Positions 12,254-42,255 of a stretch of 44,799 bases of DNA are shown one piece after another. The notes under the pieces are model-generated. The model was not told where the DNA came from. It saw only the letters and a list, made by a program, of their open reading frames with translations, and ran no database searches. The position numbers and the translations under genes were made by a program. The stretch lies in IMG/VR virus record IMGVR_UViG_3300037076_000138, positions 1 through 44,799 of that record; one strand, 5' to 3'. This DNA comes from a virus. How positions within the stretch are numbered: the first letter of the stretch is position 1; each line of letters starts with the position of its first letter.

Positions 12254-12871
12254 TTAGACCATATCGTAGATGTCCTGATACTCGACGAAACTTCCGCATC
12301 CGATTCCGAGTTTGGCCTCAAGCCGCTTGGCGATGATCTGCGTTTCCTCCGGCGTGGTTTCTCGCCAGAGGCAGACACCAGCCCATATTTTCATACAATG
12401 CAAAACTAGTTTGCAGGAAACAGCCCAACCGGCCTCGATGCCATCACCGGCCTCGATGCCATCACCGGCCTGGATGCCCTCACCGGCCTGGATGCCATCA
12501 CCGGCCTCGATGCCCAAACCGGCCTTGATGCCCGAACCGGCCTCGATGCCCCAACCGGCCTGGATGCCCCAACCGGCCTGGATGCCATCACCGGCCTGGA
12601 TGCCCCAACCGGCCTGGATGCCCGAACCGGCCTCGATGCCCGAACCGGCCTTGATGCCCCAACCGGCCTTGATGCCCCAACCGGCCTGGATGCCCTCACC
12701 GGCCTCGATGCCCGAACCGGCCTCGATGCCCTTTTCGACGACGATACGCTTTTGGAGTGTGATTTTAATGTTCCCCGTCGCCGTCAAACTGCCTGCCAAC
12801 TCGAAACGCCATCCCTTGTCTACGAGACCGGGATAGTTTTTGTCCACCAACAAATCTGCTTTCGGTTCCAT
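12254..12871 (-). CDS. Hexapeptide tandem-repeat protein
   Basis: A 205-residue leftward protein. The N-terminus (EPKADLLVDKNYPGLVDKGWRFELAGSLTATGNIKITLQKRIVVEKG) leads into about 16 copies of G-I-[EQK]-A-G-[DESLW], then a cysteine-containing C-terminal domain ending in a helical tail (TTPEETQIIAKRLEAKLGI). The regular six-residue period suggests a beta-solenoid. All repeat differences at DNA level change the protein. Start chosen at 12871 because the leader hairpin and a GGGAGA site precede it. Function unknown; similar repeat blocks are known in phage hypothetical proteins. Confidence 0.75.
   Translation of the reverse strand: MEPKADLLVDKNYPGLVDKGWRFELAGSLTATGNIKITLQKRIVVEKGIEAGSGIEAGEGIQAGWGIKAGWGIKAGSGIEAGSGIQAGWGIQAGDGIQAGWGIQAGWGIEAGSGIKAGLGIEAGDGIQAGEGIQAGDGIEAGDGIEAGWAVSCKLVLHCMKIWAGVCLWRETTPEETQIIAKRLEAKLGIGCGSFVEYQDIYDMV
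12431..12730 (-). repeat. Array A: 16 tandem 18-bp units, in frame
   Basis: Sixteen complete units plus a partial one. In the coding sense a unit is GGT-x-GGC-ATC-y-GCC, where x is GAT, GAG, TTG, TCG or TGG (D/E/L/S/W) and y is GAG, CAG or AAG (E/Q/K). The other four codons are invariant, so copies differ at amino-acid-changing positions only. Confidence 0.9.
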
Positions 12872-12884
12872 TGCGTCCTGCTTT

Positions 12885-12903
12885 CTCCCGCACTTGGCGG
12901 GCG
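12885..12903 (-). promoter_or_regulatory. Duplicated leader hairpin, copy 2
   Basis: Identical 19 bases to 12171-12189, placed 13 bases before the ATG of the repeat protein. It can form the same CCCGC/GCGGG stem with a 5-base loop. Confidence 0.5.
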
Positions 12904-13123
12904 TTGGTTTCGATCTGCACTTGTCATTACTATATACATCGTAACAATGTAGCCGCAGACTACAAGATAAATCCGCGTGTTTTCGGGATAAATCTTTCAT
13001 GCCGCCATAAGTCATTATGTAGCTTGCCACTACAATCGAAAAATCTTTCAATGATTTTCGGGGGAAAACCCGCTATGAAAGATTTTTATCGCAAAATCGC
13101 CAAACAAAAGGTAAAGTGCAGCC
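12904..13123. promoter_or_regulatory. AT-rich divergent control region with palindromes
   Basis: A non-coding gap between a leftward operon and the rightward glycosyltransferase. It holds several inverted repeats: TACAT-N7-ATGTA (12935-12951), CATAA-GTCA-TTATG (13006-13019), an imperfect CGAAAAATC/GATTTTCG (13037-13060), and an 11-bp pair AAATCTTTCAT (12990-13000) / ATGAAAGATTT (13075-13085). Divergent promoters and operators are expected, but I could not pick a convincing -35/-10 pair. CTACATTG on the minus strand (12945-12952) matches the core of the late element, perhaps by chance. Confidence 0.55.
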
Positions 13124-13849
13124 ATGAAAATCCACCTCTTCCTCTCGCTGTACCCGGAGAAGAACGAGGCCCGCTGTCAGGACTTCCGGGACTGCCTCGC
13201 GAAGAATCAAACGAACTCGCTGATTGATGAGATTTTCATTCTCTGCGAACCGGCTACCGACTGGTCGCGATTCGTCGGACTCGCCGCGGGCCAACGACTG
13301 ACGATCATCCCCGTTCTCCACCGCCCCACCTACGCGGAGTGCTTCGCCGTTGCTACGAAGGTCGCGGACCCCGACACCATCTCCGTCATCGCCAACGCGG
13401 ACATCTATTTCGACGAAACCCTTGCGCTCGCCCGACCCATGCGCGACATCGACTGCTACGCCCTCCTGCGATACGAGACGATCCGGTACGAGCGCCCGGA
13501 CCTCCACATCGTCGGCGAAGTCGGCGGCCAACAGCATTGGGGATTTCGGCCCGACAAGCAGAACCCCCGCGCCCGCGAAGAGCTTTGCAACGGCAGCCAG
13601 GACGCCTGGATTTTCAAAGGGCCGATCTTCGTCAAGGGCGCGGACTTCAGCCCCGGCCTGATGAACTGCGACACCCGTATCGCGTGGCAGGCGTCGGCCA
13701 CTTGCTACCGCGTCTGCAACCCCTCTCTGTCAATCAAATGCTGGCACGTTCACCGGGACTGGCACACGAAGCACAACGAAAAGAAGCTCCCCCCCGGCCC
13801 GGAACTGTTCTGCCAGCCCTGCTCACTTTCCGACATCAAATACCCGTGA
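13124..13849 (+). CDS. Putative glycosyltransferase
   Basis: A 241-residue protein with a GT-A-like pattern: MKIHLFLSLYPEKNEAR, a strand pair DEIFILCEP and RLTIIPVLHRPTYAECF, then SVIANADIYFDETL (about 88-100), where NADIYFD replaces the usual DxD metal site. A later GADFSPGLMNCDTRIAWQA region resembles acceptor-side motifs in small glycosyltransferases. It sits between the repeat operon and the tail tube, so it is cargo and may decorate virion or cell-surface glycans. The family is inferred, not certain. Confidence 0.55.
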   Translation: MKIHLFLSLYPEKNEARCQDFRDCLAKNQTNSLIDEIFILCEPATDWSRFVGLAAGQRLTIIPVLHRPTYAECFAVATKVADPDTISVIANADIYFDETLALARPMRDIDCYALLRYETIRYERPDLHIVGEVGGQQHWGFRPDKQNPRAREELCNGSQDAWIFKGPIFVKGADFSPGLMNCDTRIAWQASATCYRVCNPSLSIKCWHVHRDWHTKHNEKKLPPGPELFCQPCSLSDIKYP

Positions 13850-13875
13850 CCCGCTAGGCATAATCCATCCCCGAA

Positions 13876-13895
13876 TCCCTACATTGGGATAAGGA
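13876..13895 (+). promoter_or_regulatory. Late repeated element, copy D
   Basis: TCCCTACATTGGGATAAGGA, 9 bases before the tail tube ATG. The AAGGA end is the ribosome binding site. As in copies A, B and E it opens a late unit, here restarting tail genes after the cargo insert. Confidence 0.75.
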
Positions 13896-13904
13896 GCTAC
13901 GATT

Positions 13905-14858
13905 ATGCCACTGGCAACCGCACTACTGACCCGGATGCGCGTTTTGGAATTCAAGACCGAGGCCGCCGCCGGCACCGCCGAAAGCCTCACCACTGCCGCC
14001 GGCGTCGTCAACGCATACGACGTCAAAATCGAGCCCAACATCCCCGCGACCGAGCGAGAGGGGCAATCCAACCTATCTCCGCTGGCACCCGTTCCCGGCG
14101 CCCGACAAGGCAAGGCGACGTTCAAATCCGAGCTTGTCGGCAGCGGCGTGGCAGCGACGGATCCCTACTGGGCGACCCACCTGCTGACGTGCTGCGGTTT
14201 CCCGCTCACGAGCCACACCGCCAAGCCCCTCAGCGGCACCGCGGCAACGGCCACCATCGGCGGATTCCAGTCGGGCCGGTTCCTGTCCCTCGCGGGCGCG
14301 ATGGGCAAGTTCAACCTCACCGGCGAAACGGGCAAGCCCGCGATGTTCGATTGGGAGTTCGATGGCGTCTGGCAGCCGCCCCAGTCCGTGGCACTCCCGG
14401 CCCCGGCCTACCCCGCCGTCATTCCTCCCCGCGTGGCCGGCTGCACGTTCACGATCACCGGCGGCGCGGGCCAGACCGTGATGACGTTCCCGGTTCCCAA
14501 GATCGAAATCAGCGTGGAGAACACGCTGTACATGCGCGAGGACATCACCACGGCCAGCGGGTTCGCGGCCTGTTGCATCGTCAACCGCAAGATCACCGTC
14601 AAGGTGTCCCCCGAGGCCCTGTCTCTCGGCACCCAGGACTGGTTCGCCAACCACTTGACCAGCGCCATCTACGCCCTGAACCTGGTCATCGGCGGCGCAA
14701 CTGCGGGCAACTCGTTTACGATCACGGCCCCCAACCTGGTGCTGATGAACCCGCCGGGGTACGAGGATCGAAGCGGCCTGCTGGCCGACTCCCTGGAGTT
14801 CCTGGCCTGCCGCAGCACGTCGGCCGGCGATGACGAACTCTCAATCGCGATTGGATAG
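13905..14858 (+). CDS. Major tail tube protein
   Basis: A 317-residue, beta-rich protein, the expected size of siphovirus tail tube proteins. Features are EFKTEAAAGTAESLTTAAGVVNAYDVKIEPNI near the start, GATFKSEL-type strands (KATFKSELVG), MFDWEFDGVW, and a C-terminal domain NSFTITAPNLVLMNPPGYEDRSGLLADSLEFLACRS like the substrate-independent end of tail tube proteins. It precedes the tail assembly chaperones and tape measure, which supports the call. Confidence 0.82.
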   Translation: MPLATALLTRMRVLEFKTEAAAGTAESLTTAAGVVNAYDVKIEPNIPATEREGQSNLSPLAPVPGARQGKATFKSELVGSGVAATDPYWATHLLTCCGFPLTSHTAKPLSGTAATATIGGFQSGRFLSLAGAMGKFNLTGETGKPAMFDWEFDGVWQPPQSVALPAPAYPAVIPPRVAGCTFTITGGAGQTVMTFPVPKIEISVENTLYMREDITTASGFAACCIVNRKITVKVSPEALSLGTQDWFANHLTSAIYALNLVIGGATAGNSFTITAPNLVLMNPPGYEDRSGLLADSLEFLACRSTSAGDDELSIAIG

Positions 14859-14869
14859 GACATAGGACC

Positions 14870-15151
14870 ATGATGCAAATCAGAAATTCCGGCCAGATTT
14901 ACAACCTCACGTCGGCCCTGTTCGGCAACTCGGACGATGCCCGCGCGATTCTTGGCCGCGTCAACTCCGATACATGGTGCGGCTTCGCCCCCCGGACGGT
15001 CTACGCGAAGGCCCTGACGGTCGCTCAGGTGGGGCAGGACTGGCAGATCACGAGCATTGTCTGGCAGACGGCCAACAACAGCCCGTTCCCCGCCGTGGCG
15101 TTCACCCCGTCGCTGTCGTTCGCCCTGGTTCCCCCTGTGGAGAAAACGTAA
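14870..15151 (+). CDS. Small tail-region hypothetical protein
   Basis: A 93-residue protein between tail tube and tail chaperone, with a TAGGA site before the ATG and a stop overlapping the next start. It is rich in aromatic and polar residues (SDTWCGFAPRTVYAKAL, WQITSIVWQTANN), as in small tail-associated proteins. No family recognised. Confidence 0.6.
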   Translation: MMQIRNSGQIYNLTSALFGNSDDARAILGRVNSDTWCGFAPRTVYAKALTVAQVGQDWQITSIVWQTANNSPFPAVAFTPSLSFALVPPVEKT

Positions 15152-15540
15152 TGCTTGCCCTGGACCCGAATCAGACGGCGGAAATCAAGTTGACCCTGGA
15201 CCCGGCCCGCGTGTTTCGCGTCCGGTTCCTGACGTGCAGGGAGACGCTGGCCTACTCCGTCGCGCACGCGGCCGCGATCAAGGAAACCGACGAAGCCACG
15301 AGCCTGCAAATGTTCCTTGACCTGTTGGCGCCCGTGGTGGCCGACCCCAAAGACCTGGCCGACGTGCTGACCCCCGGCGAAGCGTGGGAACTGGCCGCGA
15401 AGATCCCCGTCGCCATCATGCTGGCCGAGTCGGATAAAAAAAAATCCTACTTGCAATCGCAATCCGATGGGGTGAAGGATGCGAACACGACCGGGCAACC
15501 GGCAAGTGCATCGACCCCCCCAGCCCCGCAAGCCCCGTAA
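15151..15540 (+). CDS. Tail assembly chaperone, gpG-like
   Basis: A 129-residue unshifted product. The N-terminal part (TAEIKLTLDPARVFRVRFLTCRETLAYSVAHAAAIKETDE) and the helical LLAPVVADPKDLADVLTPGEAWELAAKIP fit tail chaperones that coat the tape measure before tube assembly. It is directly before the tape measure and holds an A9 slippery run at codons 96-98, the arrangement of lambda G/GT. Confidence 0.8.
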   Translation: MLALDPNQTAEIKLTLDPARVFRVRFLTCRETLAYSVAHAAAIKETDEATSLQMFLDLLAPVVADPKDLADVLTPGEAWELAAKIPVAIMLAESDKKKSYLQSQSDGVKDANTTGQPASASTPPAPQAP

Positions 15541-15818
15541 TCCTCAAAAATCACGACTGCCCGGCTTGCGGTGGAAACGAGCCGGCCGCGCGGGACTGCA
15601 AATCCTGCATGGGCACGGGCAAGGTGCGAGTGACGCAATGCCTGTTCGAGTCAATCACGGCCGACGTGTGGGAGCTTCTGGAAGCCATGAACGACGCGGA
15701 CCACGGCAATCTTCCGGTGCATGGCGGGACTCTCGATCAAACCCGCGTGTTCACGGAATCCCTCCGATACGCCCGCGAGTTGAACGACCGATGCAAGGTG
15801 CAATATGAGCGAAGGTAG
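15151..15818 (+). CDS. Tail assembly chaperone gpGT-like fusion, made by -1 frameshift
   Basis: Slipping back one base in the A9 run continues translation to the TAG at 15816-15818, giving about 222 residues. The -1 frame is open without stops from the slippery site, and a TAA just upstream of the run closes it on the left, as expected of a true shift site. The added T-like part carries a zinc-binding pair CPACGG / CKSCMGTGKV and a helical end (DVWELLEAMNDADHG, LRYARELNDRC). It ends 14 bases into the tape measure gene. In lambda the ratio of G to GT matters for tail length. Confidence 0.8.
15436..15444 (+). promoter_or_regulatory. Programmed -1 frameshift slippery site
   Basis: Nine consecutive A, read in frame 0 as AAA-AAA-AAA after GAT. 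The run allows tandem slippage by one base and is followed by in-frame sequence in the -1 frame. Confidence 0.75.
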
Positions 15819-18069: not shown

Positions 18070-18070
18070 A

Positions 18071-21166: not shown

Positions 21167-21174
21167 GGCCGCGT

Positions 21175-21203
21175 ATTATAGGTCTGGATAACCCCAGCGT
21201 CAA
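21175..21203 (-). promoter_or_regulatory. Sigma70-type promoter, leftward
   Basis: On the minus strand TTGACG (21198-21203), 17 bases, then a perfect TATAAT (21175-21180). The start site would be near 21168, almost at the ATG of the leftward gene. The -35 box touches the late element on the opposite strand. Confidence 0.8.
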
Positions 21204-26059: not shown

Positions 26060-26125
26060 GCGGCGGTGGCCCTGCCTTGCGTGGCAGTAGCACCCCAGGG
26101 AGTTGCGAGACTCCCCGCCGCTTTT
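26060..26125 (+). terminator. Branched RNA structure ending in T run
   Basis: An outer stem GCGGCGG (26060-26066) / CCGCCGC (26115-26121) encloses two hairpins, CTGCC/GGCAG (26072-26087) and GGGAGT/ACTCCC (26098-26115, sharing one base with the outer stem), and is followed by TTTT. It reads as a three-way-junction terminator or structured leader for the phosphatase unit. Confidence 0.5.
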
Positions 26126-26142
26126 GAAGGAAAGGAAACGAT

Positions 26143-26214
26143 ATGCTGATGACCCTCGAAACATTCCTCTGGCGTGTGGCCGTGGCGCTGGCCATTGCGG
26201 GGTGCCTGCTATGA
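26143..26214 (+). CDS. Very small membrane or lipoprotein-like peptide
   Basis: A 23-residue peptide (MLMTLETFLWRVAVALAIAGCLL) with an AAAGGAAA site and stop overlapping the phosphatase ATG. It is a hydrophobic helix with AIAGC near its end, like a signal sequence or a tiny membrane protein. It may serve mainly as a coupling leader. Confidence 0.45.
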   Translation: MLMTLETFLWRVAVALAIAGCLL

Positions 26215-26675
26215 ACCAGTTCAACCCGCCCCAGCACCTTCCCGGCCTGACCAACTTCGCCCGCGTGAGCGACGACCTGTACAGGGGAGCTGAGCCGACG
26301 CAGGAGGGGCTTGCCTATCTCGCCACGATCGGCGTCAAGACCGTGTTGAGCCTGTGCGAGTTCTACGACCTGGACTGGTTTGATCCAGGGCACGTCAGGT
26401 CTTTGGGCATGGGCTACGTTTCCCGCCCCTGCAATCCTTGGCATCCTGAATTGGAAGATGTATCGTGGTTCTTGAGAATCTTGACCACGACCCTCCTGCC
26501 AGTTTACATCCACTGCCGCCAAGGGTGCGACCGCACCGGACTCCTGATAGCCTGCTACCGAATCTCCGTGCAGGGCTGGCCGAAAAAGGATGCGATAGCG
26601 GAGTTGCGGGCCTTCGGCTACCACGAATCGACGTACCCGCAAATCCTGAAATTCATCGAGGAATACCAACCATGA
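26211..26675 (+). CDS. Cysteine-based protein tyrosine / dual-specificity phosphatase
   Basis: A 154-residue protein with the PTP signature HCRQGCDRTG (His101-Cys102-x5-Arg108), preceded by YRGAEPTQEGLAYLATIGVKTVLSLCEF as in atypical dual-specificity phosphatases. A likely general-acid loop lies in RPCNPWHPELED. The enzyme removes phosphate from Tyr/Ser/Thr or from phospholipids or polyphosphates. Such genes are unusual in phages of this size; the target is unknown. Confidence 0.85.
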   Translation: MNQFNPPQHLPGLTNFARVSDDLYRGAEPTQEGLAYLATIGVKTVLSLCEFYDLDWFDPGHVRSLGMGYVSRPCNPWHPELEDVSWFLRILTTTLLPVYIHCRQGCDRTGLLIACYRISVQGWPKKDAIAELRAFGYHESTYPQILKFIEEYQP

Positions 26676-27479: not shown

Positions 27480-27624
27480 CAGTTAAAGAACTCATTGTCG
27501 AATTGCAAAAACATCGTGTGCCTGTTCGCGTGTTATGACCCGCCGCCCGTGGTGGGACGACGGCTTTCACCTCGTCGTCAACGAAGAGATACGAAGTTTC
27601 TGGGAACACTTTAAGGAGCATCGA
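27476..27624 (+). pseudogene. Probable broken small gene (two frameshifts)
   Basis: Three frames carry successive pieces: TVKELIVELQKHRVPVRV then a stop (27476-27538), CYDPPPVV from about 27531, and DDGFHLVVNEEIRSFWEHF from about 27556. The first piece resembles the start of small phage proteins beginning TVKELI. Two indels would explain the layout. Alternatively 27535-27624 is an N-terminal extension of the next gene. Confidence 0.4.
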
Positions 27625-28476
27625 ATGAGCATATCGGAACATCTTGAGGCTTGGTGGAACGAGATCGAAGGCGTGACGGGTTTTTACCATGCTCATGCCC
27701 CCGCGATTCACTCGATGGTCACCACGGCCTACTCCATGCTGGCGTCGATGCAGGCGCTGCACCTGGTGAACATGGCCGCGTACCCGACGCTGGCGGCTTG
27801 GCTGGCCTTCGCTGCAACCGTTTTCGGCGTGACGGGCATCGCCCTGATCCCGCACTCGCGGACTGTCCAGGCAACTCAACGGCTGGCCCGAGAGATGCAC
27901 ACGATGCTGTCGGACGTGGAGATCACCGGCGACAGGAACACCGGCAACAGGAACACCGGCAACAGGAACACCGGCAACTGGAACACCGGCGACTTGAACA
28001 CCGGCGACTTGAACACCGGCGACTGTAACACCGGCAACTGTAACACCGGCAACTGTAACACCGGCGACTGTAACACCGGCGACAGGAACACCGGGTTTTT
28101 CTGCACCGAAACCCCATCACCGACGTTTTTTGACACGCCCTGGACTGGCGGCACCCACGAACAGGCCAGAGAGTTAGTCCCCTATGTCGAATTATCCGTG
28201 GGCGCCGCCTGGACGCCGACCGAGAAAATGACGGACGCCGAAAAGAAGGCAAACCCGAATCACACGACCATCGGCGGGTTCCTCCAAGCCCAAACGCTGA
28301 CGATTCAACAGGCGTTCCCGCTGGCGTGGGCGAAGATGGACGAAGCCACGAAACAAAGATTCCTCGATCTACCGAATTTTGACGCCGAGAAGTTCCTGGC
28401 CTGTACCGGCGTTGACGTGCGGAAGCCCACTGTTGAGATCGTAGTAGATGGCGTCAAGTATCGACGAGTCGAATAA
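27625..28476 (+). CDS. Pentapeptide-repeat membrane protein
   Basis: A 283-residue protein. AAGGAG sits just before the ATG at 27625; an ATG at 27535 is in frame. The order is a helical start, a membrane segment (about residues 56-76, LAAWLAFAATVFGVTGIALIP), eleven pentapeptide repeats N-T-G-[DN]-x (residues about 103-157), FFCTETPSPTFFDTPW, and a soluble C-terminal domain. The NTG-repeat plus FF-x-TP block is known in phage hypothetical proteins. Pentapeptide repeats fold as right-handed quadrilateral helices and can mimic DNA. Function here unknown. Confidence 0.75.
   Translation: MSISEHLEAWWNEIEGVTGFYHAHAPAIHSMVTTAYSMLASMQALHLVNMAAYPTLAAWLAFAATVFGVTGIALIPHSRTVQATQRLAREMHTMLSDVEITGDRNTGNRNTGNRNTGNWNTGDLNTGDLNTGDCNTGNCNTGNCNTGDCNTGDRNTGFFCTETPSPTFFDTPWTGGTHEQARELVPYVELSVGAAWTPTEKMTDAEKKANPNHTTIGGFLQAQTLTIQQAFPLAWAKMDEATKQRFLDLPNFDAEKFLACTGVDVRKPTVEIVVDGVKYRRVE
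27931..28095 (+). repeat. Array B: 11 tandem 15-bp units, in frame
   Basis: Units RAC-x-AAC-ACC-GGC, where RAC is GAC or AAC (D/N) and x is AGG, TGG, TTG or TGT (R/W/L/C). The AAC-ACC-GGC part is identical in all units except GGG in the last. Nearly all variation is protein-changing. Confidence 0.92.
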
Positions 28477-29312: not shown

Positions 29313-29349
29313 GCCCGGTGGCGCAGAAATGGGTCACCGGGCTATTTTT
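29313..29349 (+). terminator. Rho-independent terminator closing the middle block
   Basis: GCCCGGTG (29313-29320) pairs with CACCGGGC (29335-29342), then TATTTTT. It separates the late/middle genes from the DNA-modification genes; GGAG of the next gene follows at once. Confidence 0.8.
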
Positions 29350-29358
29350 GGAGCGACG

Positions 29359-30255
29359 ATGAGCGTTGAGATTATCCAGGGCGAAGAATTAGCCATGCCG
29401 ATCAAAACCTTGGTGCCCTGGTTTGGCAACAAGCGGACACTCGCCCCGCTGATCGTGGCTGAACTCGGCAAACACCGGAGCTATTTCGAGCCGTTCTGCG
29501 GCGGCTTGGCCGTGCTGCTGGCGAAACCGGAATCGTCGCATGAGAACGTCAACGACTTGCACGGCGACCTGATTAACCTGGCCCGCGTGGTGCAAGATCC
29601 AACGATGGGCAGTAAATTCTATCGTCGGATGCGCCGCGTGTGGTTATCGGAGGAGCAATTCCTGGAGGCCCGCGAAACGATCATCGCTGGCGAGTGCCCG
29701 GCCAACGTAAATTTTGAGCGGGCCTGCGCATTCTTCTTTGTCGGCTGGTTCGGCCGCAATGGAGTGCTGGGCACGAAGTCCTGCAACTTCGGATTCTGTG
29801 CCCGATGGACGCCAAACGGCGGGCATAGCGGCAAACGGTTTCAATCAGCCGTGCAGTCAATCCCGGCCTGGCGGCAACGGATGCGACGGCTGACAATCTT
29901 GAAGCGAGACGCTTTTGAAATGCTGGCCGACATTCAGGATTGCGCAGGAACGGTCATCTATTGCGACCCGCCATATCTGGTCAAGGGTGCGAGCTACCTG
30001 CACGATTTCAAGTTGGCCGATCATCAACGGCTGGCCGATGCCGTGGCGAAGTTTAAGACGGCCCGTGTGGTCGTCAGCTACTACGATCACCCGCTATTGT
30101 CCGACCTATATCCCGGCTGGGCGCAGGTGAAGATCAACGTGACGAAGGCCCTGGCACATTGTCAGAACCGAGAAAAGAATGACACAAAGGCCGTGGAAGT
30201 CCTACTCATCAACGGCCCGTCATTCACCACTCAAGGCGATAAGCTGTTCGCATGA
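29359..30255 (+). CDS. DNA adenine methylase, D12 class (Dam-like) 1
   Basis: A 298-residue protein. Motif order is that of D12 adenine methylases: SAM-binding WFGNKRTLAPLI with FEPFCGGLAVLL (residues about 21-54), target region in the middle, catalytic DPPY (203-206, YCDPPYL), and late VVVSYYDHP. Transfers methyl to N6 of adenine in a short DNA site, likely protecting phage DNA or marking replicated DNA. Start at 29359 follows GGAG. Confidence 0.88.
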   Translation: MSVEIIQGEELAMPIKTLVPWFGNKRTLAPLIVAELGKHRSYFEPFCGGLAVLLAKPESSHENVNDLHGDLINLARVVQDPTMGSKFYRRMRRVWLSEEQFLEARETIIAGECPANVNFERACAFFFVGWFGRNGVLGTKSCNFGFCARWTPNGGHSGKRFQSAVQSIPAWRQRMRRLTILKRDAFEMLADIQDCAGTVIYCDPPYLVKGASYLHDFKLADHQRLADAVAKFKTARVVVSYYDHPLLSDLYPGWAQVKINVTKALAHCQNREKNDTKAVEVLLINGPSFTTQGDKLFA

Positions 30256-31325
30256 CCATGGAGAGCAAGATGGAACCTGTGATTTTGGACGACTTAACGG
30301 CTCCTTTTCCGTGGTTTGGCGGCAAGCGGCGTGTGGCCGATCTTGTTTGGAACGCCTTGGGGCCGGTCGACAACTACGTCGAGCCGTTCGCGGGTTCACT
30401 GGCCTGCCTCTGGGCGCGGCCCGATGACCGCTGGCAGACCGTGACCGAAACAGTCAACGACGCCGACTCGTACCTGTCGAATTTCTGGCGGGCATTGTCG
30501 GCGGACCCGGAGGAGGTAGCCCGTTGGTGCGACTGGCCGGTCAATGAGACGGACCTGCTCGCCCGCCACCTGTGGCTCGTCAATACCGGGCGCGAGCGAA
30601 TCGCCAAGATGGAAGCTGACCCGGAATTTTACGACGCGAAGGTCGCGGGCTGGTGGGTGTGGGGCATCAGTGCATGGATAGGATCGGGTTGGTGCAGCGG
30701 GAACGGACCTTGGAAGATTATCGACGGAGAGGTGCGCAAACTGCCCCACCTGGGCAACGCCGGCCTGGGCGTCAACCGCAAACTGCCCCACCTGGGCGAC
30801 GCCGGCCAGGGCGTCAACCGCCAACTGCCCCACCTGGGCAACGCCGGCCTGGGCGTCAACCGCCAACTGCCCCACCTGGGGGACTACTTCCAAGCCCTCG
30901 CCTGCCGCCTGCGCCGCGTCCGCGTCTGCTGCGGAGATTGGGCGCGGGTTGTCACCAACGGCGCGATGGCCTACGGTGACTCCGTGGGCGTGTTCCTTGA
31001 CCCCCCCTACCTCGGCGACGTGCGGACGAAAGACCTGTACCGCGTGGACGATCATTCGATCAGCGCGGCCGTCCGCGATTGGGCGATTGCTCACAGCGAC
31101 GACAAGCGGTTGCGGATCGTGCTGGCTGGTTACGCTGAGGAACATCAGGACTTCATGCCCGCAAGCTGGCGCGTCCATGAATACTCCGCGAACGCAGCCT
31201 ATCAGACAGCCAACGGTGGCGGCGTCAACGCGGCGAACCGCCACAACGAGCGGCTCTGGTTCTCGCCCCACTGCATAACTGGCGACAATGAACCCCTCCT
31301 CTCCCAGCGGGCACGGCCACTGTAA
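30252..31325 (+). CDS. DNA adenine methylase, D12-like 2, with internal repeats
   Basis: A 357-residue protein overlapping the first methylase by 4 bases. It has PWFGGKRRVADLVW and VEPFAGSLACLW (SAM site), and catalytic FLDPPYL with DPPY at 250-253. Between them, residues about 163-204 hold three copies of a 14-residue unit LPHLG[ND]AG[LQ]GVNR[KQ], in the place of the target-recognition region. The late part (RHNERLWFSPHC) resembles phage DNA methylases. ATGs at 30252, 30261 and 30270 are all possible. Confidence 0.82.
   Translation: MTMESKMEPVILDDLTAPFPWFGGKRRVADLVWNALGPVDNYVEPFAGSLACLWARPDDRWQTVTETVNDADSYLSNFWRALSADPEEVARWCDWPVNETDLLARHLWLVNTGRERIAKMEADPEFYDAKVAGWWVWGISAWIGSGWCSGNGPWKIIDGEVRKLPHLGNAGLGVNRKLPHLGDAGQGVNRQLPHLGNAGLGVNRQLPHLGDYFQALACRLRRVRVCCGDWARVVTNGAMAYGDSVGVFLDPPYLGDVRTKDLYRVDDHSISAAVRDWAIAHSDDKRLRIVLAGYAEEHQDFMPASWRVHEYSANAAYQTANGGGVNAANRHNERLWFSPHCITGDNEPLLSQRARPL
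30738..30878 (+). repeat. Array C: three 42-bp units plus partial, in a methylase
   Basis: Three units differ only at AAC/GAC (N/D), CTG/CAG (L/Q) and AAA/CAA (K/Q); every other base is identical. A fourth partial unit ends in GGG-GAC. Located between SAM-binding and catalytic motifs. Confidence 0.9.
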
Positions 31326-33733: not shown

Positions 33734-34661
33734 CGAACTGTCCGCGATTTTCGCTTACATCCCCGGCACGGAAGAATTGAAAATGATTCCAGGGGATGTG
33801 ACTCGCCACCACGCCGCCATGATTGCGGCGCACAGGCTGCGCGAGGGCATCGCCGGTCAAAACTACTGCCGAACCGAGTACGTCCCGAAAGATGGTGACT
33901 GGTTGGACTGCCAGTTTAAGATTGACGAAACCAATATTCCGTCGTGGGTCACGCCCGAAATCCGCGACCGCATGGAACAGATGTCGGCGCAGTTCCGCGA
34001 CCGTCTTGTTGTTAAGGGCGATTGTCCAACCATGCTCGGCGGGAAGTACATTGTCACCGACATCCGAACGGTTGAATGGGCAGACAACTGCGTTATCCTG
34101 GTTGGCCCCAAAGCCAAACTGACGATCAACAACGTAGGCAACGTGGTTTTTGGCAACGTGTACGGGTCCGTCCAGACCGGCGACGTGTACGGGTCCGTCC
34201 AGACCGGCGACGTGTACGGGTCCGGGTCCGTCCAGACCGGCGACGTGTACGGGTCCGTCAAGATCGGCGACGTGTGCGGGTACGGGTCCGTCCAGACCGG
34301 CAACGTGTCCGGGTCCGTCCAGACCGGCGACGTGTCCGGGTCCGGGTCCGTCCAGACCGGCAACGTGTACGGGTCCGTCCAGACCGGCGACGTGTCCGGG
34401 TACGTCCAGACCGGCGACGTGTACGGGTCCGGGTCCGTCAAGATCGGCGACGTGTACGGGTCCGTCCAGACCGGCGACGTGTACGGGTCCGGGTCCGTCC
34501 AGACCGGCAACGTGTCCGGGTCCGTCCAGACCGGCGACGTGTACGGGTCCGGGTCCGTCAAGATCGGCGACGTGTACGGGTCCGTCCAGACCGGCAAACG
34601 CGACAAAGCGGCCTTCGTTTGCCTCGGGGGTGTTATGCAGTCAAACGAGGATAAAAAATGA
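33726..34661 (+). CDS. Nonapeptide tandem-repeat protein
   Basis: A 311-residue protein. The first 140 residues form a soluble domain (MCNELSAIFAYIPGTEELK, WVTPEIRDRMEQMSAQFRDRLVVKGDCPTMLGGKY), then about 150 residues of repeats built from G-S-V-Q-T-G-D-V-Y with extra G-S insertions, and a short tail. The regular glycine and valine spacing suggests a beta-solenoid. The start overlaps the ATPase stop by 8 bases; the stop overlaps the truncated nuclease start. I know no function. Confidence 0.75.
   Translation: MCNELSAIFAYIPGTEELKMIPGDVTRHHAAMIAAHRLREGIAGQNYCRTEYVPKDGDWLDCQFKIDETNIPSWVTPEIRDRMEQMSAQFRDRLVVKGDCPTMLGGKYIVTDIRTVEWADNCVILVGPKAKLTINNVGNVVFGNVYGSVQTGDVYGSVQTGDVYGSGSVQTGDVYGSVKIGDVCGYGSVQTGNVSGSVQTGDVSGSGSVQTGNVYGSVQTGDVSGYVQTGDVYGSGSVKIGDVYGSVQTGDVYGSGSVQTGNVSGSVQTGDVYGSGSVKIGDVYGSVQTGKRDKAAFVCLGGVMQSNEDKK
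34152..34596 (+). repeat. Array D: 27-bp tandem units with GS insertions, in frame
   Basis: Unit GGG-TCC-GTC-CAG-ACC-GGC-RAC-GTG-TAC. Variable codons are GAC/AAC (D/N), TAC/TCC/TGC (Y/S/C), CAG-ACC/AAG-ATC (QT/KI) and the presence of an extra TCC-GGG. I find no synonymous difference between units. Confidence 0.92.
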
Positions 34662-36023: not shown

Positions 36024-36103
36024 ATAAGACGAAAATCCAAGAGGACGCGCTGGTCATCTCCGAAGGCGGCGTGGTCATGGTCGATGGAACGGTGAAAAAA
36101 TGA
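36020..36103 (+). pseudogene. Remnant of the ATPase C-terminus
   Basis: A GTG overlapping the previous stop opens 27 codons ending in ALVISEGGVVMVDGTVKK and a TGA that overlaps the nuclease ATG. The last 15 residues match the end of the ATPase at 33733. It has no domain of its own; it may persist as a coupling leader for the nuclease. Confidence 0.65.
36054..36097 (+). repeat. Right copy of ATPase-end duplication
   Basis: Matches 33672-33715 with 41 of 44 bases. Two of the three differences are synonymous. Together with the adjoining perfect nuclease-start repeat it marks the right edge of the inserted cassette. Confidence 0.85.
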
Positions 36104-36210
36104 AAACCATCCGCTGCTCAAGCCTCCCGATCATCGCCAAGTGCCAGGCACCCTTTCACGCGACCGGCGCCCTCCGCGTCAACCACGACGGAGGGATTGC
36201 GGCCGGCGGC
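36095..36210 (+). repeat. Right copy of 116-bp nuclease-start duplication
   Basis: The intact version in its gene; identical to 34653-34768. Identity over 116 bases, including third positions, implies a recent event. Confidence 0.95.
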
Positions 36211-37203: not shown

Positions 37204-37218
37204 GAAAGGCAGTGTTTT

Positions 37219-38118
37219 ATGGCAGAGGAAAAACCGACAGCGTTAGCGAAGTGGGCAGCGGCAGGACAGGGCCTGGAGAAGATCGCCAGCGAGTGCATCG
37301 CCCTTGTCCGGGCGGACAACAGCGGGCGTTTCGGCAAGGCGTTCGCCCTGGCGCAGGGTATCACTTCCCTCCGCAACGCGATTACCCACGAGCACATGGC
37401 CGGCGTCATGCCCCTCCAGGGCGTCCCCCTGGGCTTTATGACCGACAAGGACAAGGAGAACGGCTACCCGGAGAACATCGTCAAGGACGTAGTGATTGAG
37501 GCTGTGCTGAACGACGTACCCCTCGTCGGCAACTGCTTCAATATCATCGCCGGGCGGTTCTACGTCACAAAGAACGGCTGCTTTCATAAGGTTCTGAACT
37601 TTCCAGGGTTGACCGACCTGATGCTCGACTTCGGCGTACCGGAGATCAAGGGCGACAAGGGCGCCCTGGTCAACTGCAAAGCGCGATGGGCCTTGAACGG
37701 CAAGGCCGGGGAACTATCGGCCCTGATCCCGATCCGCGTCAACAGCGGCATGGGCGCCGACGCGATTGTCGGCAAGGCGACCCGGAAGCTGCTGGCCCGC
37801 GTCCACGACCGGCTGACGGGCACCCAGAACAGCTTGCCAGAGGGCGAGGTTGACGACCTGGACGCCAGGCACGTCAACGCTACGGTCCTGCAAAACACCA
37901 ACGGCGGCAAGATGGGATTCGGCGGTAACAAGCCCATCGGTGAAGTGCTTCCCATTCCAGGCCAGTCCTCCGAGACCATCGGACCCGGCGGCGAGGTCAT
38001 CGAGCGGACCCCGGAGACCGACGCCCCCACGCCCGTCCAGCATGACGCCACCGGCGCGGAACTGCCCCAGGATGCGCCGGCGGATGACGTGAACAAACTC
38101 TTCCCGCCCGGAACGTAG
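37219..38118 (+). CDS. RecT-like single-strand annealing protein
   Basis: A 299-residue protein. Core segments are ECIALVRADNSGRFGKAFALAQGI, the central CFNIIAGRFYVTKNGCFHKVLN, ALIPIRVNSGMGADAIVGKATRKLLARVHDRLTG near the end of the fold, and an acidic disordered tail ending VNKLFPPGT. These fit RecT/Redbeta-type annealing proteins, which pair with an exonuclease, here the gene just upstream. AAGGCAG precedes the ATG. Confidence 0.75.
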   Translation: MAEEKPTALAKWAAAGQGLEKIASECIALVRADNSGRFGKAFALAQGITSLRNAITHEHMAGVMPLQGVPLGFMTDKDKENGYPENIVKDVVIEAVLNDVPLVGNCFNIIAGRFYVTKNGCFHKVLNFPGLTDLMLDFGVPEIKGDKGALVNCKARWALNGKAGELSALIPIRVNSGMGADAIVGKATRKLLARVHDRLTGTQNSLPEGEVDDLDARHVNATVLQNTNGGKMGFGGNKPIGEVLPIPGQSSETIGPGGEVIERTPETDAPTPVQHDATGAELPQDAPADDVNKLFPPGT

Positions 38119-38124
38119 AAATTG

Positions 38125-38230
38125 CCCGCGTCGGCGACTGTCTTTTAATCCGGATATGCCGACGGCGCGGGCGGTAACAGGGCGGCTTGTAGTCGTCCTG
38201 GCCCTGGTGGAACTCCTACACCCACCGGGG
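38125..38230 (+). ncRNA. Structured leader with two hairpins upstream of tRNA
   Basis: CCCGCGTCGGC (38125-38135) pairs with GCCGACGGCGCGGG (38158-38171) with a small bulge, and CCCTGGTGG (38202-38210) pairs with CCACCGGGG (38222-38230), 9 bp. No coding frame is convincing and no T run follows, so this looks like a structured RNA or processing leader for the tRNA, not a simple terminator. Confidence 0.4.
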
Positions 38231-38235
38231 CGAAT

Positions 38236-38325
38236 GCGGCGGTAGCTCAGTGGTAGAGCGTGCGACGTGGGTTTCTAATCCTTTCTTCCGTCGCGAGGTC
38301 GCAGGTCCGAATCCTGCCCGCCGCA
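38236..38325 (+). tRNA. tRNA with enlarged anticodon arm, possibly Arg(UCU)
   Basis: Acceptor GCGGCGG/CCGCCGC, D-arm GCTC-AGTGGTA-GAGC, T-arm GCAGG-TCCGAAT-CCTGC, variable loop AGGTC and discriminator A are all canonical. The anticodon stem TGCGA/TCGCG (TGCGAC/GTCGCG if extended) encloses 25 bases instead of 7. Inside lies GGG-TTTCTAA-TCC, like the loop of tRNA-Arg(TCT). The extra 18 bases could be an intron-like insertion or an extended stem. CCA is not encoded. It may be functional, processed, or degenerate. Confidence 0.7.
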
Positions 38326-38378
38326 ATGATTCACCCGGCTCGTCGCCGGAAACAGGCCAACAACACAGGAGAAAAAAC

Positions 38379-38726
38379 ATGGCCAAGAGCAACAAAGAAG
38401 AAGTGCCCGGTCAACTGGAGTTGATCGACGTCGACGACCCGAAATACAAGGAAGTGAAGCGCGAGCTTCTGGCGTACGACACGTTGAAGATCGCCAACCA
38501 GGAAGAAGGCGCCGCGCGCCGCAAGGGCTTGAAGGACAAGAAGAAAAAGGTTATCGCGGCCATCGTCGCCACCGGCGAGCAACCCGATTCCGCCGGCACC
38601 TATCATTTCCTTCTGGCGGGCAAGCAGTGGGACATCTCCCAACCGTCCGAACTGAAGATCAAGAAGCACAACGCCAAGGATGCGGACCCCAGCGAAGACG
38701 GCGTGGACAAAGGCGCGACGGAGTAA
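38379..38726 (+). CDS. Small charged hypothetical protein
   Basis: A 115-residue Lys/Glu/Asp-rich protein (EVKRELLAYDTLKIANQEEG, RRKGLKDKKKKVIAAIVATGEQPD) with CAGGAG before the ATG. Between the annealing protein and the resolvase, it may be a small DNA-metabolism accessory. The middle strand pattern (AGTYHFLLAGKQWDISQP) resembles DUFs linked to recombination genes. No firm family. Confidence 0.6.
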   Translation: MAKSNKEEVPGQLELIDVDDPKYKEVKRELLAYDTLKIANQEEGAARRKGLKDKKKKVIAAIVATGEQPDSAGTYHFLLAGKQWDISQPSELKIKKHNAKDADPSEDGVDKGATE

Positions 38727-38728
38727 CC

Positions 38729-39259
38729 ATGCGACTGCTCAGCCTCGATCCATCCAGTAGTTGCATCGGGTACGCGATTTTCGATGATCGGCGTCTGGCC
38801 GAAATGGGCCGGCTCACCCCGGATAAATCCGCCGGCGGAGTCCTGTCGCACACGCTGTCCCTGCGGCGTCAACTGCTGGAAATCCTGACTGAGCAGGAAC
38901 CCGACATCATCCTGGCGGAAGCGATGATCGAAAAACAGTACACCCGCGACCCACGCCGCACGACGTCATTGGCGCCGTGCGGCTGGTCGATGGGTGTAAT
39001 TTTTGGAACATGCCTCACGCTCGCTGGTTTTCGCCCCATCGAGAAACCCCGCTGCACCGTGGCCGCTGTCGGCAATCAGCAATGGACCCGCGGCCTGTCG
39101 TCAAAAGACCATAAGGCCGAACGCAAGACGATGACGAAGGCGCAGTACCCGCAGTATGACCCGGACATGGACCCTGACGGCGACATGGCCGATGCGATCA
39201 TGCTGGCCAACTGGTGGCTGGCGGGCAGAGAGCGGCAGGAAAGGTTGGCGGGATTATGA
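38729..39259 (+). CDS. RuvC-like Holliday junction resolvase
   Basis: A 176-residue protein with an RNase-H-like active-site layout: LLSLDPSSSCIGYAIF (Asp7), IILAEAMIEK (Glu64) and DGDMADAIMLANWW (Asp152/Asp155). Size matches RuvC. It cleaves branched DNA made during recombination or before packaging. Overlaps the next small gene by ATGA. Confidence 0.8.
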   Translation: MRLLSLDPSSSCIGYAIFDDRRLAEMGRLTPDKSAGGVLSHTLSLRRQLLEILTEQEPDIILAEAMIEKQYTRDPRRTTSLAPCGWSMGVIFGTCLTLAGFRPIEKPRCTVAAVGNQQWTRGLSSKDHKAERKTMTKAQYPQYDPDMDPDGDMADAIMLANWWLAGRERQERLAGL

Positions 39260-39384
39260 CCGACATCAACGAACACACCAAAGTCCCCTTCGGCCGACGC
39301 GAGAATAAAAACAAGCCGCTGGGCAAAGTGACCGACAAGTTCATCGGCCTGCTGGCGGTGGCGCTGGCGGTAAAACAATCTTAA
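39256..39384 (+). CDS. Very small hypothetical protein
   Basis: A 42-residue protein coupled by ATGA to the resolvase (MTDINEHTKVPFGRRENKNKPLGKV). It is basic, with a short hydrophobic end (FIGLLAVALAVKQS). Role unknown. Confidence 0.45.
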   Translation: MTDINEHTKVPFGRRENKNKPLGKVTDKFIGLLAVALAVKQS

Positions 39385-39415
39385 CGACGGCGCGTGCCGT
39401 CTGGAAATTAACAAC

Positions 39416-40225
39416 ATGATTGCCCGTGTATTTCCGAGACTTACCAACATGACGCCAACCGACAAATTAGCCTTCGTCGGATACCCGCCTCTTGGACTTG
39501 ATGAAAACAGTTTTGACGGCGTTTTGGTATCTTGCACGTTCACATGGGACAAGGGTATCTGTGAGGACATAGCCCGTCAGTGGCGTTTCCACTACCCTGA
39601 TAAATCCGTGAGCGTCGGCGGCCCCGCCTATGGCGATGCTGGCGAAAACTTCACACCATGCCTATTCCTGCGGCGAGGCGTTACAATCACGAGCCGGGGT
39701 TGCCCGAACCGATGTTGCATGGCCGGCCAGCGTGAGGGCAACATCCGGCTGTTGCCGATCATGGACGGCTACGAGGTCCAGGACAACAACCTACTGGCCT
39801 GCCCACCGGAGCATATCGCCCGCGTGTTCGCCATGCTGCGGAATCAACCGTTCCGGCCCCGGCTTACCGGCGGCCTGGAGGCGTCCAGGATCACCCGCGA
39901 GATCGCCCGCGAGATCATCAGCCTGGACCCGGAGTGTCTCTACACAGCCTACGACCGGCCGGGACAGCGAGAATCCGTGGAGCGCGCGGCGGCAATTTTC
40001 AAGGAAGTTTCGGGCTGGTCTAAGAGCAAGATCAAGACCCGGATTTCCTGTTACACTGTGGGCGGTTATCCGGGCGACACCCGCGAAGCCGCCGACCGGC
40101 GGGCGCATGAGATTGTCACGTTTGGATTCCGTGTCTGGGCACAGGCTTGGCGCGGTGAAGATGGCAAAGTCGATCCCGAATGGCGGGATTGGTCCGGTAA
40201 AATCTGCACAATGGGCGGCAAGTAA
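39416..40225 (+). CDS. Radical-SAM-like phage protein lacking the third cluster cysteine
   Basis: A 269-residue protein. The layout (VGGPAYGDAGENFTP, GVTITSRGCPNRC, QREGNIRLLPIMDGYEVQDNNLLACPPEHIARVFAML, RLTGGLEASRIT, RISCYTVGGYPGDTREAADRR) is that of phage radical SAM proteins. The cluster motif should read Cx3CxxC; here it is C96-PNR-C100-C101-M-A103, so the third position is Ala. It may bind a changed cluster, or be inactive. No frameshift explains it. Confidence 0.7.
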   Translation: MIARVFPRLTNMTPTDKLAFVGYPPLGLDENSFDGVLVSCTFTWDKGICEDIARQWRFHYPDKSVSVGGPAYGDAGENFTPCLFLRRGVTITSRGCPNRCCMAGQREGNIRLLPIMDGYEVQDNNLLACPPEHIARVFAMLRNQPFRPRLTGGLEASRITREIAREIISLDPECLYTAYDRPGQRESVERAAAIFKEVSGWSKSKIKTRISCYTVGGYPGDTREAADRRAHEIVTFGFRVWAQAWRGEDGKVDPEWRDWSGKICTMGGK

Positions 40226-40244
40226 ACGCCCGGAAGAAGGAACC

Positions 40245-41150
40245 ATGTTTACGCTCGAAAAGCAGTCGAAAGTGAACGTCAAAGAGTCCGAGGCAAAGCA
40301 ACTCCTGGCTATGAACACCTATGAGAACCAGCGAAAGATTCGCCGGGCCACCGTGGGCATTCTTCAGGACGAGTTGACTGCCGGGCGGCTGCGACCGCTG
40401 GAAATCTCTCTCGCCCGCGTCCAGGGCGGCTCCTATTGCCTTGTGAACGGACAGCATCAGCTTACCGTCGCCCTGGAGCACAAGGCCGGCCTGCCCGCCA
40501 CGGTAAGCTACTACCGCTGTGACACGCCCGCCGACATGGTGCATCTGTTTGCCACGTTCGACACGACCCCCAGACGCTCCGGTGCCGACTGCATCCGTGG
40601 CTATCGCGGCCTGCTGGCCGCCGAGCTTGTCGACCTGCCGATTCGCATGTTGACCGCCTGCTCCAGCGCTCTGGCGATCCTGGAGGACGGCGGCCCGAAA
40701 TTCTACAGCCGTCCCATTTCCACGGCGCACAAGGCGGGGCTGCTCACGATATACCTCGATGATCTCACCTTCATCTACAGCTTGTGGAATGAGCGGAGTG
40801 AGGCATTGATTCGCCGTGTGCCTGTAATGCTGTCCATCCTGGCGATCTCGCGAAAGAACGGCGACAACTGCTACCCATTCCTGGAGCAAGTCGTCAACGG
40901 CATCGGCCTTCAATTGGACACCCCGCAATACAAGCTCCACGAGTTTCTGACATTGAAGTATCCTTCGGGCACCGGCTGGCCATGTTTCCAGTCGGTCTAC
41001 ATGAACATCATCTCGTGGTGGAACACGTTCTGCACCGGCATTTTCCGCCAGTCCGTCAAGGCGGCGTCCATGAAGACGCTGCCAACGATCCTGATCTATG
41101 GTGAGAAGGCAGGCAAAGGCCCCCCCAAGCTGAAGCTGACCGCCAAGTAA
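40245..41150 (+). CDS. ParB/DGQHR-like protein
   Basis: A 301-residue protein. The N-terminal part (LLAMNTYENQRKIRRATVGILQDELTAGRLRPLEISLARVQGGSYCLVNGQHQLTVALEHKAGLPATVSYYRCDT) matches the ParB-like/DGQHR fold, with VNGQHQ in place of DGQHR. The rest is helical with aromatic-rich YPSGTGWPCFQSVYMNIISWW. Related proteins act in DNA partition or modification systems. Start after AGAAGGAA. Confidence 0.65.
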   Translation: MFTLEKQSKVNVKESEAKQLLAMNTYENQRKIRRATVGILQDELTAGRLRPLEISLARVQGGSYCLVNGQHQLTVALEHKAGLPATVSYYRCDTPADMVHLFATFDTTPRRSGADCIRGYRGLLAAELVDLPIRMLTACSSALAILEDGGPKFYSRPISTAHKAGLLTIYLDDLTFIYSLWNERSEALIRRVPVMLSILAISRKNGDNCYPFLEQVVNGIGLQLDTPQYKLHEFLTLKYPSGTGWPCFQSVYMNIISWWNTFCTGIFRQSVKAASMKTLPTILIYGEKAGKGPPKLKLTAK

Positions 41151-41212
41151 TTCCAACCGCCCCTCCCCTCGCCGGGCAGGGCAACTATTTTCACCCGCCA
41201 AGCGGAATTGTA

Positions 41213-41240
41213 TTGCAAGCGGAAATGGACGTGGTATAAA
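41213..41240 (+). promoter_or_regulatory. Sigma70-type promoter for the replication genes
   Basis: TTGCAA (41213-41218), 16 bases, TATAAA (41235-41240). The start site near 41247 is within a few bases of an ATG at 41250 and upstream of the initiator gene. Confidence 0.65.
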
Positions 41241-41249
41241 GGCGAGCGC

Positions 41250-41417
41250 ATGACCAGATTCTACGACAACTTCTCTCCTGGCGGCTTTGGGAATTTATCA
41301 GCACGTCGCCCGCAAAGGCCGTCTGGTCATGCGCCCCGAGGCCGTCAGAAAAGAAGCTGTCAGAAAGAAGGAGCGCATGACGACATACAGGATCAAGGAT
41401 TGGCACGTCAATTTTGA
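41250..41417 (+). CDS. Possible small leaderless gene
   Basis: A 55-residue frame (MTRFYDNFSPGGFGNLSARR) starting 9 bases after the -10 box; its second half overlaps the initiator in another frame. It is basic and Gln/Arg-rich. The promoter-to-ATG distance favours real translation, but composition is weak evidence, so it may be only a leader. Confidence 0.35.
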   Translation: MTRFYDNFSPGGFGNLSARRPQRPSGHAPRGRQKRSCQKEGAHDDIQDQGLARQF

Positions 41418-42255
41418 GAACAACCGCACGCGCGAACTTAAGGTGCTGACCTGGGTTCCCATGCCCAATAAACACGACGGCGACGGCTACACCGAACTCC
41501 TTGACCATGCTGACGGCGCCGCCCATTACGGTGTCTGGGCCATTCTGGTACAAATCGCAAGCAAGTGCGACCCTCGCGGCACCCTCCTGCGGGATGTCCG
41601 TCGCGATCCCGCACCCGCCTGCGGCGATCCCGCACCCTCCTGCGGCGATCCCGCACCCGCCTGCGAGGGGGGTAAAACAGTGTTGACCGAACAGGCGAAC
41701 GGTCAAATACCACACGATTTCGCCTCTCTGTCCAGAATGAGCCGAATACCCCAAAAGGTAATCTCGGCTGCAATACCTCGGCTATTGCAAATTGGTTGGT
41801 TAGAGCAAGTTATAGAAATCCCGCAGGAAGATGCGACCGCGCCGCACTTTAGTGCGCCACCGTCGCAGGGAAGTGCCTCTGAATGGAATGGAATGGAAGG
41901 GAAGGGAATAGAAGAGAAACCCCCTACCCCCAAAGGGGGTGTCGCGGCGGCTTCCGTTGAAGACCCGGAGAAGATTCCAGAATCCATCGACACTCCGGAG
42001 TTCCGGATTGCATGGTACGACTGGATCGCGGACAAGAAAGACCGCAAGGAAAGACTCACCCCCCGCGCCCGTAAGACGCAACTGGAACGCCTGGGGAAAT
42101 TCGACGCGCCGACGGCAATCGCCATGATCCAGCAGAGCATCACGAACGCTTGGAAGGGGATTTTTGAACTCAAGACCGACCGGCCTGGCGGCAACGGGCA
42201 GGGCGTGGCGAACTGGGACGGCCTCAAACCGGGCGAAAGGCCCTTCATGTCATGA
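41377..42255 (+). CDS. Replication initiation protein
   Basis: A 292-residue protein. The N-terminal part (YRIKDWHVNFENNRTRELKVLTWVPMPNKHDG, AAHYGVWAILVQIASKC, LSRMSRIPQKVISAAIPRLLQIGWLE) is a winged-helix pattern common to phage O-like/DnaT-like initiators. The linker is low-complexity with three repeats of DPAP-x-CG, and the C-terminal helical part (RKTQLERLGKFDAPTAIAMIQQSI) may bind helicase. AAGGAGCGC precedes ATG 41377. The stop overlaps the dnaB-like gene, as in initiator-helicase pairs. Confidence 0.75.
   Translation: MTTYRIKDWHVNFENNRTRELKVLTWVPMPNKHDGDGYTELLDHADGAAHYGVWAILVQIASKCDPRGTLLRDVRRDPAPACGDPAPSCGDPAPACEGGKTVLTEQANGQIPHDFASLSRMSRIPQKVISAAIPRLLQIGWLEQVIEIPQEDATAPHFSAPPSQGSASEWNGMEGKGIEEKPPTPKGGVAAASVEDPEKIPESIDTPEFRIAWYDWIADKKDRKERLTPRARKTQLERLGKFDAPTAIAMIQQSITNAWKGIFELKTDRPGGNGQGVANWDGLKPGERPFMS
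41605..41667 (+). repeat. Array E: three 21-bp units in the initiator linker
   Basis: Units GAT-CCC-GCA-CCC-GCC-TGC-GGC; the middle unit has TCC for GCC (Ala to Ser) and the last ends in GAG (Gly to Glu). Again, differences change amino acids only. Confidence 0.85.

What the first reader, a model, noticed from the sequence alone, without database searches (positions are those of the whole stretch)
12431..41667. Five unrelated genes carry tandem repeats that vary only at protein-changing positions
Arrays at 12431-12730 (18 bp, minus), 27931-28095 (15 bp), 30738-30878 (42 bp), 34152-34596 (27 bp) and 41605-41667 (21 bp) are all in frame. Within the complete units, invariant codons show no synonymous drift, while set codons switch among amino acids. 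In three arrays the switching site is the same word, GGC-RAC (Asn/Asp). Ordinary decay after duplication would leave synonymous changes. Either the arrays are renewed constantly and selected for diversity, or a shared mechanism introduces changes at set positions. A phage-wide diversification or phase-variation system is an exciting possibility.
Basis: partly seen in the sequence, partly recalled or inferred. Interest (0 to 1): 0.85.

Follow-up and report, generated by a model that had tools for sequence, protein, structure and literature searches.

The report
Phage repeat arrays with switching codons
This phage carries in-frame repeat arrays in which only certain amino-acid positions vary and silent changes are missing; the same pattern in scores of related arrays points to fast gain and loss of repeat units plus strong selection for varied units, not to a new mutation machine.

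Summary
All five arrays are real and in frame; complete units carry 21 amino-acid-changing variants and no synonymous one. It also generalises: 87 hexapeptide, 66 pentapeptide and 34 methyltransferase-insert arrays from viral contigs and bacterial genomes show it. Framework codons are nearly fixed within an array (hexapeptide pS 0.025) but close to free between arrays (pS 0.52). Set codons vary strongly (pN 0.31). Set-codon pN/pS is 16.6, 3.6 and 5.9; a neutral simulation of unit turnover gives about 1. So constant renewal alone cannot explain it: protein-level selection at set positions is needed. First and third bases of the same codon, two nucleotides apart, vary in 84 versus 4 of 87 hexapeptide arrays, and relatives do not keep the word GGC-RAC, so a base-targeting mechanism is unlikely. 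No reverse transcriptase was found in 24 contigs. Near-identical phages (99.5-99.9%) differ by 4-23 whole units. In hexapeptide arrays Glu/Lys anticorrelate at lag 3 (0 of 1000 permutations), as expected for a three-hexapeptide-per-turn beta-solenoid; AlphaFold2 gives a solenoid. The closest known pattern is TAL-effector repeats. A phage-wide diversification or phase-variation system is not supported. Function is unknown. The fifth array (three units) is uninformative.

The parts
12257..12871 (-). Hexapeptide-array gene (205 aa from the ATG at 12871; the open frame reaches up to 13051)
   Evidence: AlphaFold2 beta-solenoid, mean pLDDT 86 (best of five, others 59-62); relatives L008-L079
12431..12730 (-). 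18-bp array, 17 complete units GGC ATC NAG GCC GGT NNN (G-I-[E/Q/K]-A-G-[W/S/D/E/L])
27535..28476 (+). Pentapeptide-repeat protein (Pentapeptide_2 PF01469, E 2.6e-14; phrog_14105, E 9e-41)
27931..28095 (+). 15-bp array, 11 units [D/N]-[C/R/L/W]-N-T-G, 10 of them complete in codon choice
30252..31325 (+). D12-class adenine methyltransferase relative (PF02086, E 4e-7; phrog_56) with the 14-aa repeat inserted between motif I (PFAGS) and DPPY
30738..30878 (+). 42-bp array, 3 full units R-[K/Q]-LPHLG-[N/D]-AG-[L/Q]-GVN plus a part
   Evidence: the same insert at the same place in relatives L002-L006 and the same repeat in L279-L358
33726..34661 (+). Protein of unknown family with the 27/33-bp array G-[D/N]-V-[Y/S/C]-G-S-(G-S/Y)-V-[QT/KI]
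   Evidence: no relative found by three searches
34152..34596 (+). 27-bp array, 15 complete units, some with an extra 6-bp Gly-Ser/Tyr pair
41605..41667 (+). 21-bp array of 3 units GDPAP[A/S]C in a replication-initiator-like protein (41287-42255, phrog_678)
   Evidence: too short to be informative

Best explanation
These are in-frame tandem-repeat protein segments that keep gaining and losing whole units by slippage or unequal recombination, so framework codons of an array share a recent common ancestor. At a few set positions, amino-acid variants that arise by ordinary point mutation are strongly favoured and spread among units, while synonymous variants are not. Shown: whole-unit gain and loss between near-identical phages; fixation of synonymous framework codons within but not between arrays; great excess of amino-acid change at set codons; Glu/Lys complementarity at lag 3 in hexapeptide arrays. 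Inferred: the hexapeptide, and probably the pentapeptide, arrays fold as beta-solenoids whose set positions point outward. Hexapeptide codon 3 would pair charges between successive turns and codon 6 would face the outside, where variety is selected for solubility, for avoiding identical stacked neighbours, or for binding. Not known: the ligand or function.
For: Set-codon pN / pS = 16.6 (bootstrap 10.8-30.6) hexapeptide, 3.6 (2.6-5.4) pentapeptide, 5.9 (3.6-11.9) methyltransferase insert. Within-array framework pS 0.025/0.104/0.059 versus between-array pS 0.52/0.70/0.53. A neutral turnover simulation gives 0.89-1.14. Matched control: first base varies in 84 of 87 hexapeptide arrays and third base of the same codon in 4; pentapeptide 57 versus 9; methyltransferase codon 8 18 versus 1, codon 2 19 versus 1. 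Descent by mutation: where Glu is GAA at codon 3, Glu at codon 6 is always GAG (23 of 23 arrays), as if derived from TGG by changes at bases 1 and 2. Unit gain and loss with 99.5-99.9% identical flanks: L019/L044 10 units, L017/L038 5, L021/L041 4, L014/L068 23, L225/L234 10. Lag-3 Glu/Lys anticorrelation, 0 of 1000 permutations, seen in viral and genome subsets. AlphaFold2 solenoid; the best PDB hits are left-handed beta-helix enzymes but not significant. Isolate genomes show the same, e.g. Paenibacillus senegalimassiliensis, 26 units, no synonymous allele.
Against: The order of variants is close to random, with less segmental duplication than simple slippage would leave, so many small exchanges or recurrent mutations must be assumed. 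The strength of selection needed is high and its target is unknown. Pentapeptide arrays hold more synonymous variation (only 22 of 66 have none), so the pattern is not universal. Glu:Lys balance per array is over-dispersed, not tightly held. The 27-bp array of this window has no known relatives.
Confidence: 0.72

Rival explanations
1. A dedicated targeted-mutation mechanism (like a diversity-generating retroelement, or base-specific editing) writes changes at set codons after the array has expanded.
For: Excess of change at set positions in unrelated genes; nearly random order of variants; small alphabets that often share the third base.
Against: No reverse transcriptase in 24 contigs, with working controls. 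Changes are not confined to one base: they include A/G, C, T and second-base changes. The same A/G transition two nucleotides downstream, where it is silent, is almost absent. The DNA word around the site differs between arrays. Different protein families use different positions.
Confidence: 0.06
2. Neutral renewal: arrays are simply young, so no synonymous change has had time to arise, and the variable codons are those that tolerate change.
For: Arrays do turn over fast; framework codons are homogenised.
Against: Silent sites and set codons sit in the same units and share one genealogy, so neutral renewal gives a ratio near 1; observed 3.6 to 16.6.
Confidence: 0.07
3. Unit differences are selected at the DNA level because they slow recombination and keep the array from collapsing.
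For: Heterogeneous repeats recombine less (general knowledge, not tested here).
Against: Synonymous differences would serve equally well and cost less, yet they are the ones missing.
Confidence: 0.04
4. The array order is a recognition code: each unit contacts a part of a target, as in TAL effectors, and arrays are selected for new targets.
For: Fixed framework with a small alphabet at two set positions per unit and near-random order in up to 37 units; closely similar codon behaviour is reported for TAL-effector repeats.
Against: No target, no nucleic-acid-binding domain and no relation to TAL repeats found; lag-3 pairing at codon 3 is explained by solenoid stability; arrays of near-identical phages differ by blocks of units, which would destroy a strict code.
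Confidence: 0.11

Closest known systems
TAL-effector repeats of Xanthomonas and Ralstonia (repeat-variable diresidue, AnnoTALE, PMC4753510)
   Same: Near-identical DNA repeats with variation confined to set codons; 25 of 26 single-base changes in those codons were amino-acid changing and only a small subset of codon pairs is used.
   Different: 33-35 aa DNA-binding repeats; here 5-14 aa units, the hexapeptide one predicted as beta-solenoid, with no DNA-binding evidence. No homology claimed.
Borg tandem repeats (Schoelmerich 2023, PMC9879509)
   Same: In-frame, unit length a multiple of 3, lineage-specific, unit number varies between close relatives.
   Different: Borg repeats are perfect, virtually without SNPs, and mostly disordered; here units differ at set codons, and at least the hexapeptide array is predicted to be folded.
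Pentapeptide-repeat proteins (PF01469)
   Same: The 27535-28476 protein matches the family.
   Different: Ordinary member; only the codon pattern was studied here.
D12-class DNA adenine methyltransferases (PF02086)
   Same: PFAGS and DPPY motifs and family score.
   Different: Carries a 14-17 aa repeated insert before DPPY, modelled with low confidence.
Diversity-generating retroelements
   Same: Variation confined to set codons.
   Different: No reverse transcriptase found, no adenine specificity; a template repeat was not searched for.

Membership tests
Pentapeptide_2 (PF01469), gene 27535-28476 | Score above the Pfam gathering cut-off | tested here: met
   53.3 bits against 26.4
D12-class adenine methyltransferase (PF02086), gene 30252-31325 | Score above the gathering cut-off | tested here: met
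   30.4 bits against 22, on residues 21-89 only
D12-class adenine methyltransferase (PF02086), gene 30252-31325 | Motif I (FxG) and DPPY | tested here: met
   Invariant P45 F46 G48 and D250 P251 P252 Y253 across six relatives
D12-class adenine methyltransferase (PF02086), gene 30252-31325 | Methyltransferase activity | not testable with these tools
   Needs an assay
Diversity-generating retroelement | Reverse transcriptase (RVT_1) on the element | tested here: not met
   0 of 24 contigs, the window among them; controls ring
Diversity-generating retroelement | Changes only at adenines of a template repeat | tested here: inconclusive
   Glu/Lys is limited to first-base G/A while the adenine beside it stays fixed, which does not fit adenine randomisation; no template repeat was searched for
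Left-handed beta-helix (hexapeptide), gene 12257-12871 | Three hexapeptides per turn | tested here: inconclusive
   Lag-3 anticorrelation and beta-solenoid model agree; Foldseek hits to LpxD/GlmU not significant; handedness not read
TAL-effector-like repeats | 33-35 aa repeat with DNA-binding diresidue | tested here: not met
   Units are 5, 6, 7, 9-11 and 14 aa; the hexapeptide model is all beta in the array
Phase-variable contingency locus | Unit change shifts frame or switches a promoter | tested here: not met
   All five units are multiples of 3 and lie inside genes; observed indels in relatives keep frame

The most novel reading that the evidence does not exclude
Several unrelated phage protein families (hexa-, penta-, octa-peptide and methyltransferase-insert arrays) have converged on one design: a recombining array of units with a fixed frame and a small alphabet at set codons, whose order carries information for recognising a partner, so that phages evolve new binding surfaces by shuffling units.
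Probability: 0.17. Interest if true: 0.85.

Novelty: new variant of a known kind. Interest (0 to 1): 0.6.

Why it matters
If right, short-unit repeat proteins of phages are among the strongest cases of diversifying selection at defined sites, with a built-in silent control two nucleotides away. They would give natural libraries of working repeat units (fixed frame, permitted alphabet, stacking rule at lag 3) for protein design, and would mark phage proteins that are in an arms race.

Tried and rejected
No near relative of the window in the phage collection. BLAST with this window's hexapeptide protein in phages gave nothing; the low-complexity filter may hide repeats. No relative of the 27-bp-array protein. 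Reverse-transcriptase search negative. Tight charge balance per array rejected: over-dispersed. Pentapeptide lag-4 signal, expected for a four-sided helix: absent. AlphaFold2 of the methyltransferase: insert not modelled with confidence. Fold search in PDB not significant; in the viral library one significant hit, an uncharacterised phage protein. Enrichment of further arrays in phages with a hexapeptide array: none beyond background (0.6 against 0.8 per 40 kb, computed). Motif strings in the literature: no paper; only an open-licence library was searched. Plasmids: no match of a hexapeptide relative.

Full report
What was checked. The window is a whole IMG/VR virus record of 44,799 bases, classed as linear, without near relatives in the phage collection; it carries terminase, portal, head, tail and replication genes. 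All five arrays exist, are in frame and lie in five different genes. Complete units hold 21 amino-acid-changing and no synonymous alleles. The 41605-41667 array has too few units to matter.

Relatives. Hexapeptide arrays were found in 72 viral loci and 44 stretches of bacterial and archaeal genomes. The array sits in at least two protein contexts with different N- and C-termini. The pentapeptide pattern gave at least 120 viral stretches and the methyltransferase repeat at least 120; the insert is at the same place of the same methyltransferase family in L002-L006. Tryptophan at codon 6 of the hexapeptide is partly an effect of the search peptides; in the set, whose pattern left that codon open, it is present in 31 of 37 arrays.

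The key measurement. In each family, framework codons are almost constant within an array, but each array has its own synonymous choice. Within/between pS: hexapeptide 0.025/0.52, pentapeptide 0.104/0.70, methyltransferase 0.059/0.53. Set codons: pN 0.31, 0.29, 0.22. The ratio of set-codon pN to pS, with changes between different amino acids counted as amino-acid changes, is 16.6, 3.6 and 5.9 with bootstrap limits above 2.6; with path-averaged counting it is 8.3, 2.2 and 3.6. Because silent sites and set codons sit in the same 15-42 bp units, they share one history of duplication and loss; a neutral simulation gives 0.89-1.14. Young age alone therefore cannot explain the finding.

Selection, not base targeting. 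At codon 3 of the hexapeptide, G/A at base 1 switches Glu and Lys and varies in 84 of 87 arrays; G/A at base 3 is silent and varies in 4. Between arrays base 3 is free (47 G, 33 A). The same contrast holds in the pentapeptide (57 versus 9) and methyltransferase (18 versus 1; 19 versus 1) arrays. No reverse transcriptase was found.

Where variants come from. Codon 6 variants mostly share the third base G of TGG: Glu is GAG in all 23 arrays whose codon-3 Glu is GAA; Leu is TTG in 15 of 15. This suggests that variants are made anew by point mutation at bases 1 and 2 within each array lineage, then multiplied (inference).

Turnover. Near-identical phages differ by blocks of whole units: L019/L044 10 units, L017/L038 5, L021/L041 4, L014/L068 23, L225/L234 10, with 99.5-99.9% identity of the aligned rest (unit counts from alignment offsets). 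At 75-90% flank identity the order is no longer recognisable. These are assembled contigs, so single alleles could be wrong, but isolate genomes show the same codon pattern.

Order and structure. Order is near random except that Glu/Lys at codon 3 anticorrelate at lag 3 (0 of 1000 permutations; viral 12, genome 0, odd half 0, even half 60 of 1000). Three hexapeptides per turn is the left-handed beta-helix period (established knowledge), and it was the lag of interest before the test was run. AlphaFold2 gives a beta-solenoid (mean pLDDT 86 in the best model, four others near 60); the best PDB matches are left-handed beta-helix enzymes, not significant. Handedness and the outward position of set residues were not measured.

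More families, same design. Octapeptide arrays SV[V/E]A[W/R/K][E/G]NS (L401, L437) and a 61-unit tetrapeptide array (L400), in phages that also hold hexa- or pentapeptide arrays, show fixed frames and switching codons. Phages with hexapeptide arrays do not carry more further arrays than unselected ones, so a genome-wide mechanism is not indicated.

Known parallels. TAL-effector repeats behave alike at codon level (PMC4753510); Borg repeats share in-frame turnover but are perfect (PMC9879509). The held literature has no paper with these motifs and none was found on this pattern in phages. Verdict: real and general; mechanism most likely unit turnover plus protein-level diversifying selection; function open.

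Noticed in passing
L401:2117-2493 and L437:8426-8843: Octapeptide arrays SV[V/E]A[W/R/K][E/G]NS, 15 and 17 units, with fixed framework codons, in phages that also carry a hexa- or pentapeptide array.
   Followed up: partly
L400:13921-14651: A 61-unit tetrapeptide array [G/D/E/Y]AV[G/D/R/S/Y] of 12 bp in a phage with a hexapeptide array.
   Followed up: partly
L170, L140, L161: Decayed arrays with much synonymous scatter, perhaps old arrays that no longer turn over.
   Followed up: no
window 29329-31325: Two D12-class adenine methyltransferase genes in tandem; only the second carries the repeated insert.
   Followed up: no
window 26103-26675: A protein-tyrosine/dual-specificity phosphatase-like gene in a phage (PF03162, E 6e-15).
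   Followed up: no
window 38235-38326: A tRNA-Arg (TCT) gene of 92 bases.
   Followed up: no
hexapeptide loci, e.g. L037 and L009: The same hexapeptide array occurs between two unlike sets of N- and C-terminal segments, so the array seems to move between proteins or to have arisen twice.
   Followed up: no
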